This document shows, in pieces, positions 16,373 through 20,697 of a DNA stretch of 64,000 nucleotides (the stretch's first letter is position 1; the number at the start of each line of letters is the position of its first letter). The position numbers and the translations under genes are program-made. Source of the DNA: Phascolomyces articulosus (taxonomy: Eukaryota > Mucoromycota > Mucoromycetes > Mucorales > Lichtheimiaceae). Under the pieces are notes generated by a model. The model saw nothing but the letters and a program-made list of their open reading frames with translations. It made no database searches and was not told where the DNA came from. Where the stretch lies: NCBI GenBank assembly GCA_025677815.1, contig JAIXMP010000001.1:2108001-2172000 (forward strand). The letters are read 5' to 3'.

Positions 16373-19300
16373 ATGAGATCATTTGTATCGCGTTTGAGAT
16401 CTAATCCAGTAACAACGCAATTACGTGTTTCAACAAAATGCACACCAGCAAGACCATTGCTTCGTGTTCGAGAGATCCCACGATCATTTACTACTCAATC
16501 ACTTCGATCGTCGACTTTATTGACTCAACAACAATCGCTTAAAGGCCATGGAATTAGTGGATTTCATACTTCTCATGTAATTTCAGCCGCGATCCCGAAA
16601 CACACAAATCGTCTTGTAAATGAAAAAAGTCCCTATCTTTTGGTATATATTACTTTTTTTTTGCTTTGATAGTTGTATAAAGGATATATTGTATTAACTA
16701 ATTTTTCTGCACGCTTTATTTTTTTTCTTATAATAGCAACATGGTAAGGTGATACAGATTTTGGGTGCTATGATGTTTTATGCTTTATCTAATCACTATA
16801 ATATATTTTCTGTTTTTTAGCACATAACCCTGTACGTTGAAAAAGATTCATAAAAATAAGAAAAATAAAATGGATATTTATGAAGGAACTTTCTTTTCTC
16901 AACGTTAATTGAACTCTTTTTTATTGATAATTTAGGTTGATTGGTACCCATGGAGTAAAGAAGCATTTGAAAAGGCTATCAATGAAAACAAGCCTATTTT
17001 CTTGAGTATCGGTTATAGCACTTGCCAGTAAAGTATTGTTTCACAAAAAGATTATAAATGATTTAAGAATTTTGACTGATGATATGCAACAAATAGTTGG
17101 TGCCACGTTATGGAGCATGAATCATTTGAAAATGAAGAAACTGCTAAATATATGAACGAACACTTTATCAATATTAAAGGTAATTTATATCGTCAGTATC
17201 GAACTGCATTAAAGATAGATTGGATCTAACGGAGCTTTTTTTCAAAAAACAACAACATAATTAGTGGATAGAGAAGAAAATCCAGCGGTTGACAAGCTTT
17301 ACATGACTTACATCCAATTGATTAGTGGACGTGGGGGTTGGCCGATGTCTGTATTCCTTACTCCTGATCTAGCACCCTTTTTCGGTGGCACCTATTTCCC
17401 ACCCGGTGATCAGTATGGAACGCCAGGTTTCCGTACATTGTTGCAACGTGTAGTTGAAATTTGGGAAGGAGCAGAAGATAAGATTAGAGAAGATGCCGAT
17501 TCAACTATAGCTCAACTCCGTGCTTATGCTGATTCGGATCCATTGGACTTGGAAAATGCCGGTACACTCATCCATCCAGATCATATCATACCAGCTGCTT
17601 ATAAACATTTCGATACAGCATTTGATGCTGAAGAAGGTGGATTTACAGCTGCTCCCAAGTTTCCTACCCCTGTTCAAGTGCAATTCTTGTTTGAATATTT
17701 TGCTTATAATCAAAAGAACGAAGAGAATGCTCAAGATGCCAAAAAAGCACTTGATATGGCATTGTTCACTCTCAAGGTATATATACACGCTTACTTTTAT
17801 TATTTTATTTGCATAATTTTGATTATGTATTGACTTTATTATGACCTTGCAATCATTAGAAAATAGCAATGGGCGGTATTCGTGGTAAGATATTTATATA
17901 TATATAGTTTATGGAAGAACAATGTTTTTATTGTTATATGTGAATAGTATAATAATCATTTGAATGGATAAATATAGACCATATTGGCAGTGGGTTCCAT
18001 AGGTAAGTTTACTTTTTTTTGTTAATTTGCTACTTTTCCATGCTATTACCTTTGAACCATGGATTAATTAAATCACTTTGTTTCCCTATATAACAGATAT
18101 AGTACAGATAAATACTGGCATGTGCCTCATTTTGAAAAGATGCTTTATGATCAAGCTCAATTGCTTTCTGCCTATACGTCCGCTTATTTGATTTCTAGGG
18201 ATCAAGGTTTTGCAGATGTAGCTAAAGATATCGTCAAGTATGTTTCACAAGATCTTCAAAATCCTACTGGTGGTTTCTACTCTGCTGAAGACGCAGACTC
18301 ACTTCCTACCGCTCAATCTTCAAAGAAACTGGGTATTATCTCATTCCATAATTAGTATGACGAGATTTTGGTGGTTCGCATTTTTACTCATACATTGGAC
18401 AACATATTGGTTTTTGTAGAAGGAGCTTTCTATGTTTGGGAAATGCAACAGCTAGAAGAGATTCTTGGATCTAATGCGGCCAAAGTCTTTAATAAATATT
18501 ATGGTGTTCATAAGGATGGAAATGTTGATCCTGCTCAAGATCCACAGAATGAGCTTGTGATGCAGGTAAAAAAGGAATAGAAGCAATTGTCATTTTATTT
18601 ATATGCGGATTTTATATTTACACTTTTTTCTCTATCTGGGGATGGGGATTTGTATATAGAATGTGTTAGCTGAACAAGAGTCAGTCGATGATGTCGCTAA
18701 AGAATTAGGTATGACTGCTGAAGAAGTAGGCTCTATTCTTCAAGAATCCAAGTCAAAATTGAAAAAATTCAGAGAGGAATATCGACCAAAGCCTCATTGT
18801 GATGATAAGGTAACAATATATTATAAATATCCGATTGTTTAACCCTTATTATTTTTTACAAACCAAATTATAAACTTAATGCTAACTGAGAACTCAATGT
18901 AGATATTGACATCATGGAACGGTAAATCTAATATGACGATAAAAGATAGGGAAGGGAGTCGGAAATGGTTTGTTTTTGGAGGAATATGATTTGGATATAA
19001 CATTTCTATTATTGGATATACAGGATTGATGATTTCTGGTTTGGCTCAAGCAGCCAATGCCTTTCGAGACAATGATATTTTAAATCTTGCAACCAATGCT
19101 GCTGATTTTATCCATAATGAATTATATGTTCCAAAATCAGGTGTACTTTTGCGTAGTTACAGATCTGGTGCTTCTGATATTGAAGGTTTCCTAGACGATT
19201 ACAGGTAATGCAATGATTACTTCTTTAAATACTTTGATTATTTAATATAAAAAATAAATCTAATCATAAGTGCACGTGAAATCTCGAAAATAACCATGAT

Positions 19301-20189
19301 TATAGTTACATGATCCAAGGTCTTTTGGATTTATATGAAGCAACTTATGATGAGAAATGGATCAGCTGGGCTTATGACCTTCAACAAAAGCAAAACGAAT
19401 TGTTCTATGATAATGACAAGGGTGGTTTCTTTAATGCACAAGCAACCGACAAGAGTGTTCTTGTTCGACTTAAGGATGGTAATTGCATATGGTGATTGAG
19501 ATTTTGTTATAAAACTGGCATTCATATATATAACCACTTATTGAATAATGATTCCTCTTTTTTATTTTTTAGAACAAGATGGTGCTGAACCTTCAGCGTA
19601 AGTAAGATGATGAATAAATGGATTACAAGCACTCAATCTATCTCCCTCTATGAAAAAAAGAACTAATACATTATGTGCCTATTTCTTTCTAAATATATAT
19701 AGCAATGCAGTATCTTTAAGAAATCTTGTTAGACTTGGAACGATTCTGGAACAAGAAGATTATGTAGTGAAGGCTAGAAACACTATTGGCTCCTTCGCCA
19801 CAAGTGTTTCCAAGTTCCCATTTGCAATGCCTACTCTTTTGGGATCGTTCCTTCTTATGGTGAACGGTGTCAAACAGGTACTGGAGGTTCTATTAATCAT
19901 CCAATTGGATACAGTACATAGTCTCATCTCTTCCTTTTCTATTTATTAGATTGTTTTGACAGGAGACGATGAAGCTCAATTGGAACCTTTTAAGCAAATC
20001 ATTTCCCAAGCATTTGTACCCAATAAGATTTCTGTTCAAGCTAAAAAGGGTGGACTTATTGCTGAAAAGAACCCTATTGTTGCACAATTAGCAGAAGACG
20101 ATAAGGTAGCAGCCTATATTTGTGAGAATTTTACTTGTGGATTACCCGTTCAAGACGTCAATGAATTTAGAGCCAAGATTGAATCATAA
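16373..20189 (+). CDS. SPATA20/DUF255 thioredoxin-domain protein, mitochondrial-type (789 aa, 17 exons)
   Basis: Exons: 16373-16642, 16737-16743, 16821-16831, 16936-17027, 17097-17179, 17265-17776, 17860-17884, 17978-18002, 18097-18332, 18420-18565, 18660-18809, 18903-18921, 19024-19204, 19306-19478, 19573-19597, 19703-19877, 19950-20189. The sum is 2370 nt, in frame, and matches the size of human SPATA20. The first 60 residues are Arg/Ser-rich without acids, a likely mitochondrial presequence. Then come SPYLLQHAHNPVDWYPW, the thioredoxin-like [14 protein letters not shown] motif, [25 protein letters not shown] and [14 protein letters not shown], all signatures of the YyaL/SPATA20 family. The rest resembles an alpha/alpha toroid (six-hairpin glycosidase-like). 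Biochemical role is unsettled in the family. Exons 2 and 3 are microexons of 7 and 11 nt. Confidence 0.93.
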
Positions 20190-20397: not shown

Positions 20398-20697
20398 TTA
20401 GCAAGTGTAATCCACTTTACATTGTCTACACCAATAACCACAGTTGCCAGAGCAACATCCGCTTGCTACACACGAAGCAGGGAGACAATCACCTATAATT
20501 TTATATATAAAAGATTGACACATTTATATTATTATTGATTATTTTTTTACCAGAGTGGTAATACAATATTCTACTATCCACATCATGCACTTACGCTCAA
20601 CAAGATGGTGAAGAGGAGCAGCTTCTTCTTCAACAGGAACACCTCTGACGGCTACAACGGTAACACCCAATAAAGCAAGAACAGCAACGAGTTTCAT
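20398..20697 (-). CDS. Small secreted cysteine-rich peptide (65 aa, 8 Cys)
   Basis: Two exons, 20697-20595 and 20492-20398, totalling 198 nt. Residues 1-20 are a signal peptide (MKLVAVLALLGVTVVAVRG). A short acidic propeptide-like segment follows (VPVEEEAAPLHHLVER), then a compact domain whose eight cysteines are spaced C-x4-C-x4-CC-x3-C-x3-C-x2-C-x5-C, ending at the last Cys before the stop. The intron falls inside the Arg codon at the pro/mature boundary, a modular structure typical of secreted disulfide-rich peptides. Without splicing the frame ends at 20539 with no cysteines. Antimicrobial, knottin-like, signalling or surface functions are all possible; no family match was recognised. It converges with the SPATA20 gene. 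Confidence 0.72.

What the first reader, a model, noticed from the sequence alone, without database searches (positions are those of the whole stretch)
16737..16831. Two consecutive microexons (7 and 11 nt) encode the SPATA20 signature
QHAHNP, the invariant start of the DUF255 thioredoxin-like domain, needs CAA CAT G from 16737-16743 and CA CAT AAC CCT from 16821-16831, with introns of about 94, 77 and 104 nt around them. Tandem tiny exons at an invariant motif are unusual.
Basis: partly seen in the sequence, partly recalled or inferred. Interest (0 to 1): 0.75.

Follow-up and report, generated by a model that had tools for sequence, protein, structure and literature searches.

The report
Two tiny exons in fungal SPATA20
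A fungal gene of the SPATA20 family splits a six-residue protein motif over two very small exons of 7 and 11 bases; the same split is kept in the genome's second copy of the gene, and gene models of several related fungi lose exactly these six residues.

Summary
Confirmed at sequence level. In a 17-exon SPATA20/DUF255 gene (16373-20189 +) of a Mucorales genome (Phascolomyces articulosus by contig match), QHAHNP is encoded by CAACATG (16737-16743, 7 nt) and CACATAACCCT (16821-16831, 11 nt) between GT-AG introns of 94, 77 and 104 nt. Among one- to three-part splice paths this is the only one giving QHAHNP, and 0 of 20,000 shuffles gives any. The genome's second SPATA20 gene, 58% identical in protein, has the same 7+11 nt exons at the same positions and phases, with two silent differences, while introns 1-3 show no detectable similarity. 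Deposited gene models of Helicostylum, Circinella minor, Dichotomocladium, Choanephora and Absidia glauca lack exactly QHAHNP, as expected if predictors missed two microexons. Best reading: an old, probably constitutive microexon pair spliced by intron definition. Because 7+11=18 nt, joint skipping is in frame, so a regulated form lacking QHAHNP is possible but unsupported. No RNA evidence could be seen.

The parts
16373..20189 (+). SPATA20/DUF255 gene A, 17 exons, 789 aa (coding span ATG to TAA)
   Evidence: hand exon model, all 16 introns GT-AG, open frame; PF03190 E 1.4e-76; best relative 84% identical, Circinella umbellata P0001
16373..16642 (+). exon 1, 270 nt, ends ...KSPYLL (phase 0)
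16643..16736 (+). intron 1, 94 nt, GT-AG; TTAAC and CTAAT branch-site-like words beginning 43 and 39 nt before its end
16737..16743 (+). microexon 2, 7 nt, CAACATG (Q H A-)
   Evidence: identical in paralogue L007 2965-2971
16744..16820 (+). intron 2, 77 nt, GT-AG, phase 1; CTAAT beginning 32 nt before its end
16821..16831 (+). microexon 3, 11 nt, CACATAACCCT (-A H N P)
   Evidence: paralogue L007 3095-3105 CCCATAACCCG, two silent differences
16832..16935 (+). intron 3, 104 nt, GT-AG, phase 0; donor CCT|GTACGT scores lowest of the 32 donors in the two genes
16936..17027 (+). exon 4, 92 nt, begins VDWYPW
17860..17884 (+). short exon 7, 25 nt; both bounding introns shared with the paralogue
17978..18002 (+). 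short exon 8, 25 nt; its downstream intron is private to gene A
18903..18921 (+). short exon 12, 19 nt; its downstream intron is private to gene A
19573..19597 (+). short exon 15, 25 nt; both bounding introns shared with the paralogue

Best explanation
The two segments are genuine, most likely constitutive, coding microexons of a SPATA20-family (DUF255 thioredoxin-like) gene. They exist because three introns sit beside and within the QHAHNP codons; the positions predate the duplication that gave the two SPATA20 genes of this fungus. Shown: exact sequence, a single splice path, conserved positions and phases in the paralogue, silent-only change, and corresponding gaps in relatives' gene models. 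Inferred: the three short introns (94, 77, 104 nt) are recognised by intron definition, so exon length matters little, and are removed one after the other because factors cannot sit on both sides of a 7-nt exon at once. Inferred: both exons are included together, since including only one shifts the frame and stops translation early.
For: Single path and 0 of 20,000 shuffles for each gene. The paralogue on C45 has the same 7 and 11 nt exons, positions and phases; 14 of A's 16 introns are shared at 58% protein identity (410 of 711), and the two differences in 18 nt are both silent. Codons changed in the motif (2 of 6) are in line with the 210 of 392 changed codons at identical residues over the whole gene (motif included, M and W left out), so the exons behave as ordinary coding sequence. 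Introns 1-3 show no A-B similarity above shuffles (149, 103 and 156 of 200 shuffles reach the score). Five fungal gene models lack exactly QHAHNP (P0015, P0027, P0037, P0047 among 48 fungal-named rows, and P0184). Of the 48, 8 more begin downstream of the motif or inside it and 3 are disturbed there; 33 carry it. 0 of the 72 other rows are affected. The deposited protein of paralogue B (P0024) includes QHAHNP and differs from the model here at one residue of 732. Inclusion of only the 7 nt stops at codon 94, of only the 11 nt at codon 117. All 32 introns of the two genes are 68-123 nt, which fits intron definition as described in PMC8624252 (passages).
Against: No cDNA or RNA-seq could be examined. 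No second row named Phascolomyces, which could be gene A's own deposited protein, is among the 120 rows. 33 of 48 fungal rows carry the motif, which says nothing about exon structure. The donor after the 11-nt exon in gene A is the weakest of 32, and the acceptor before the 11-nt exon in gene B is sixth weakest of 32, so inclusion may be incomplete.
Confidence: 0.93

Rival explanations
1. The pair is a regulated cassette: the spliceosome skips both microexons together under some condition, giving an in-frame protein that lacks QHAHNP and has an altered thioredoxin-like domain.
For: 7+11=18 nt with phases 0/1/0, so joint skipping is in frame (783 aa), whereas skipping one is not. Weak donor GTACGT after the 11-nt exon in gene A and a weak acceptor before it in gene B. 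Five database proteins have exactly this form. A fungal microexon switch is published for Trichoderma Xlr2 (PMC11121469, abstract and passages).
Against: The frame property follows from the intron positions alone. No similarity of introns 1-3 between paralogues. The donor weakness of A is not shared by B (CCG|GTATGT ranks 24 of 32 from the weakest). The six residues are present in most fetched relatives. Whether any of the five database proteins rests on transcripts could not be seen.
Confidence: 0.08
2. The skipped form is the true product in some species: the five proteins without QHAHNP reflect real loss of the motif there, not prediction errors.
For: Five deposited models lack exactly these residues.
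Against: The gap ends coincide with introns 1 and 3 of both P. articulosus genes. The five lie in three separate clades; three of them (Circinella minor, Choanephora, Absidia glauca) have a nearest relative with the motif, while the nearest relatives of the other two (Dichotomocladium 2, Helicostylum) are themselves disturbed or start late. Two of the five models show other defects: P0047 joins STC to QEEN and P0037 reads GHEEN for VDREEN.
Confidence: 0.04
3. Chance: the AG-7-GT and AG-11-GT segments are coincidental and gene A lacks the motif or is a decayed copy.
For: Very short AG...GT segments are expected to be common in any sequence (general reasoning, not counted).
Against: 0 of 20,000 shuffles reproduce any path; the same pair in the paralogue; 789-aa open frame over 17 exons with 84% identity to a Circinella protein.
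Confidence: 0.01

Closest known systems
Conserved, often misannotated plant microexons (Yu et al. 2022, PMC8831610; e.g. 9-nt exons in AP2 and invertase genes; rice Os08t0562700 with adjacent 5-nt and 12-nt exons)
   Same: Exons of 15 nt or less that encode parts of conserved motifs, are missed by annotators and are conserved over long times; an adjacent pair is reported (abstract, sections 7 and 8, passages)
   Different: Different kingdom and gene; the main text has no hit for DUF255, thioredoxin or spermatogenesis; theirs rest on RNA-seq, here there is none
Microexons of Phanerochaete chrysosporium P450 genes (PMC1184071, passages)
   Same: Fungal, very small exons (down to 6 bp) between small introns
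   Different: P450 genes of a white-rot fungus, spread over many genes; not a conserved pair at one motif
Trichoderma virens Xlr2 microexon switch (PMC11121469, abstract and passages)
   Same: Fungal microexon whose skipping changes a domain
   Different: One regulated microexon in a transcription factor; regulation is not shown here
SPATA20 / YyaL / SSP411 proteins (PF03190); chains 3ira and 7tkv in the PDB
   Same: Protein family of the gene; QHAYNP (3ira) or QHANNP (7tkv) stands at the same place
   Different: Protein relationship only; says nothing about exon structure, and the listing did not name their organisms
Microexons dependent on PRP-40/PRPF40A (PMC8378409, abstract)
   Same: Tiny exons that pose the same problem for the splicing machinery; smaller flanking introns relieve PRP-40 dependence, in line with intron definition
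   Different: Animal neurons, alternatively spliced, conventionally sized introns

Membership tests
SPATA20 / DUF255 (PF03190) protein | Match to the Thioredox_DsbH profile over its length and above cut-off | tested here: met
   256.4 bits against a cut-off of 27, profile 1-162 of 163
SPATA20 / DUF255 (PF03190) protein | CHWC pair and the motifs QHxxNP and VDREE seen in relatives | tested here: met
   STCHWCHVM, QHAHNP and VDREEN in the spliced protein; motifs read from relatives
Microexon (here 15 nt or shorter, internal, coding) | Size and canonical splice borders on both sides | tested here: met
   7 and 11 nt, AG before and GT after
Microexon (here 15 nt or shorter, internal, coding) | Conserved position and phase in a homologous gene | tested here: met
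   same in paralogue B on C45
Microexon (here 15 nt or shorter, internal, coding) | Presence in spliced RNA | not testable with these tools
   no transcript data held
Regulated (switch-like) microexon | Condition-dependent inclusion | not testable with these tools
   no transcript data held; in-frame joint skipping shown to be possible only
Regulated (switch-like) microexon | Conserved flanking intron elements (often seen in animals, recalled) | tested here: inconclusive
   A and B introns 1-3 no more alike than shuffles; only one pair of old paralogues compared, short motifs would be missed

The most novel reading that the evidence does not exclude
An in-frame double-microexon cassette, kept in both SPATA20 paralogues since before the families of Mucorales parted, acts as a switch: joint skipping makes a SPATA20 form without QHAHNP, so that deposited 'defective' proteins of several Mucorales are in part a real isoform.
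Probability: 0.07. Interest if true: 0.6.

Novelty: new member of a known kind. Interest (0 to 1): 0.4.

Why it matters
It gives a clean case of an old tandem microexon pair in Mucorales, outside the plant and animal systems where microexons are mostly studied, in two paralogues with short introns. It also points to a concrete annotation error: five deposited SPATA20-like proteins probably miss six conserved residues, and others begin too late. Such cases can test whether splicing by intron definition handles 7-nt exons without special helper factors.

Tried and rejected
Alternative splice paths for the motif (one to three pieces) were enumerated, also with GC/AT donors, AC acceptors and 20-nt introns; none found. 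Similarity of introns between paralogues was tested for the 14 shared introns with 200 single-base shuffles each; introns 1-3 show none, and the best of the 14 is A15-B15, where 8 of 200 shuffles reach the score. A search for the skipped form outside fungi used a Dichotomocladium model and a snail protein with the six residues taken out. Among the 337 proteins held, the exact skip occurs in five, all with Mucorales names (that these genera belong to Mucorales is recalled). The six rows from Calcarisporiella, Geosiphon, Gigaspora, Funneliformis, Rhizophagus and Glomus carry the motif. One row counted as 'starts downstream' (P0166, no fungal name) in fact has the motif behind SPHL. A genome-wide rate of microexons was not measured: no protein set of this genome was at hand and no file of it is given. 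Structure prediction was not run, because it would not decide inclusion. The one-residue difference between the deposited paralogue B (VDQEEN) and the model here (VDREEN) was not resolved. Literature: ten searches of open-licence PMC papers; among the rows they listed I saw no title or abstract start on these exons. Several lists were cut (for example 15 of 5,717), and most subscription papers are not held.

Full report
What is there. The window lies on contig C1 of a genome of 47,401,687 bases in 110 contigs. A PF03190 search of that genome finds two loci: the window gene (A) and one on contig C45 (B). C45 is 1,865,247 bases long, the same as the contig of database protein P0024, named as Phascolomyces articulosus; P0024 matches the gene B model made here at 731 of 732 residues. 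The organism is therefore taken to be P. articulosus, order Mucorales, family Lichtheimiaceae.

Gene A. By hand and script the gene has 17 exons from ATG at 16373 to TAA ending at 20189, 16 GT-AG introns of 69-105 nt, and codes for 789 aa. The protein matches PF03190 (1.4e-76, residues 78-239) and is 84% identical to a Circinella umbellata protein.

More than chance. Between exon 1 and exon 4, all ways of coding QHAHNP in one to three AG-bounded, GT-bounded pieces with introns of at least 40 nt were enumerated. There is one way in A and one in B, both 7+11 nt, and relaxed rules add none. None of 20,000 dinucleotide-preserving shuffles of either interval allows any.

Paralogue. Gene B (L007 2788-6404) is modelled with 17 exons too. 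Proteins A and B share 410 of 711 aligned residues; 14 of 16 introns of A are at the same place and phase in B, among them introns 1, 2 and 3. The 7-nt exon is identical; the 11-nt exon differs at two third codon positions (GCA/GCC, CCT/CCG). Over the whole gene 210 of 392 codons of identical residues differ (M and W left out, the motif included), so 2 of 6 is ordinary. Introns 1-3 of A and B are no more alike than shuffled sequence.

Relatives. Of 48 fungal-named rows (P0001-P0048), 33 carry QHxx(N/T)(P/S) after SPYL-x, 4 lack exactly six residues (P0015 Helicostylum pulchrum, P0027 Circinella minor, P0037 Dichotomocladium elegans, P0047 Choanephora cucurbitarum), 8 begin downstream of the motif or inside it (five at MEHESF, P0005 and P0029 at or just before VDW, P0018, labelled partial, at HNP), and 3 are disturbed there (P0017, P0019, P0028). 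All 72 other rows carry it (Fisher test on 15 of 48 against 0 of 72, p 2e-7; the rows are related, so the p-value is only a guide). Of 217 rows first seen, one more is an exact skip (P0184 Absidia glauca), one has a changed first residue (P0217), and one has the motif behind a changed SPYL (P0166). The most economical reading is that gene predictors step over the two microexons, which can be done without breaking the frame because they sum to 18 nt. A tree of 52 rows (P0035 of the 48 was left out; P0184, two snails and models A and B added) joins A to C. umbellata (support 100/99), then Zychaea (93/74) and Fennellomyces (100/99), and B to C. minor (100/100); the deepest forks are weak or open. 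Several genera have rows in two clades (Dichotomocladium, Radiomyces, Halteromyces, Chlamydoabsidia, Apophysomyces), and the five exact-skip models fall in three separate clades. So the pair is probably at least as old as the gene duplication, in or before early Mucorales. DNA of these relatives was not available, so their exons were not seen. The six rows from Glomeromycotina (recalled grouping) and Calcarisporiella carry the motif, which says nothing on their exons.

How it most likely works. All 32 introns in the two genes are 68-123 nt. In intron definition splice sites are paired across the intron and efficiency does not depend on exon length (PMC8624252, passages). In C. [quoted passage not shown] FF domains, a part of Prp40-like proteins, occur at two loci of this genome, but no PRP40 gene was modelled. 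[quoted passage not shown] By analogy, and as inference only, introns 1-3 are each defined separately and removed in sequence. Inclusion of only the 7-nt exon stops the frame at codon 94, inclusion of only the 11-nt exon at codon 117, and joint skipping leaves 783 codons.

Splice strength. With a small matrix from the 32 introns, each left out in turn, donors of introns 1, 2 and 3 of A rank 9, 29 and 1 of 32 from the weakest, and acceptors 26, 18 and 21. In B the donor after the 11-nt exon ranks 24, but the acceptor before it ranks 6. The weak donor in A and the weak acceptor in B are the two signs that inclusion may be incomplete.

How unusual. Of the 34 exons in A and B, 11 are 25 nt or shorter (A: 7, 11, 25, 25, 19, 25; B: 7, 11, 7, 25, 25). 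Two introns are private to A and two to B, and three of these four bound a short exon, including a 7-nt exon coding VDR in B. So microexons here seem to arise from change in intron positions in an intron-rich gene family, and the pair at QHAHNP is one old instance. Four deposited models are disturbed at VDREEN (P0029, P0030, P0037, P0047), which suggests that the B-type 7-nt exon may exist elsewhere too.

Known or new. Plant work reports 2,398 microexons of 15 nt or less in 10 species, most not annotated, some encoding parts of conserved motifs, with an adjacent pair in rice (PMC8831610: abstract, sections 7 and 8, and passages). Fungal microexons are reported in P. chrysosporium P450 genes (PMC1184071, passages) and for Xlr2 in Trichoderma; that 2024 paper calls functional microexons previously undescribed in filamentous fungi and says that in fungi they had been tested experimentally only in fission yeast (PMC11121469, abstract and passages). 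Among the rows listed by ten library searches I saw no report on SPATA20 or Mucorales microexons; the library holds open-licence papers only and several lists were cut. I rate this a new member of a known kind.

Limits. No RNA was seen; exon inclusion is inferred. Exon models of A and B were made by hand, guided by homology. The frequency of microexons in the rest of the genome is unknown.

Noticed in passing
L007 3519-3525 (paralogue B, contig C45): Private 7-nt exon TGGATCG coding the VDR of VDREEN, made by an intron that gene A lacks. The deposited protein P0024 reads VDQEEN there, and gene models P0029, P0030, P0037 and P0047 are disturbed at the same motif.
   Followed up: partly
window 16373-16642: Gene A has an N-terminal extension of about 77 residues with 9 R, 12 S, 9 T and only one acidic residue, like a mitochondrial presequence; gene B starts directly at MEHEHTNRL. 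The two paralogues may act in different compartments (inference, no predictor run).
   Followed up: partly
window 20398-20697, minus strand: Small two-exon gene (20697-20595 and 20492-20398) for a probable secreted peptide of 65 residues with eight cysteines, just downstream of gene A on the other strand.
   Followed up: partly
window 16832: Donor CCT|GTACGT after the 11-nt exon is the weakest of 32 donors in the two SPATA20 genes.
   Followed up: partly
P0028 (Umbelopsis isabellina protein): Twelve extra residues stand exactly between QH and AHNP, close to the place of intron 2, hinting that an intron there also exists in Umbelopsis.
   Followed up: no
P0121 (Closterium sp. NIES-64 protein): The stretch around WYPWGEEAF is repeated in the deposited model, probably an assembly or gene-model error.
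   Followed up: no
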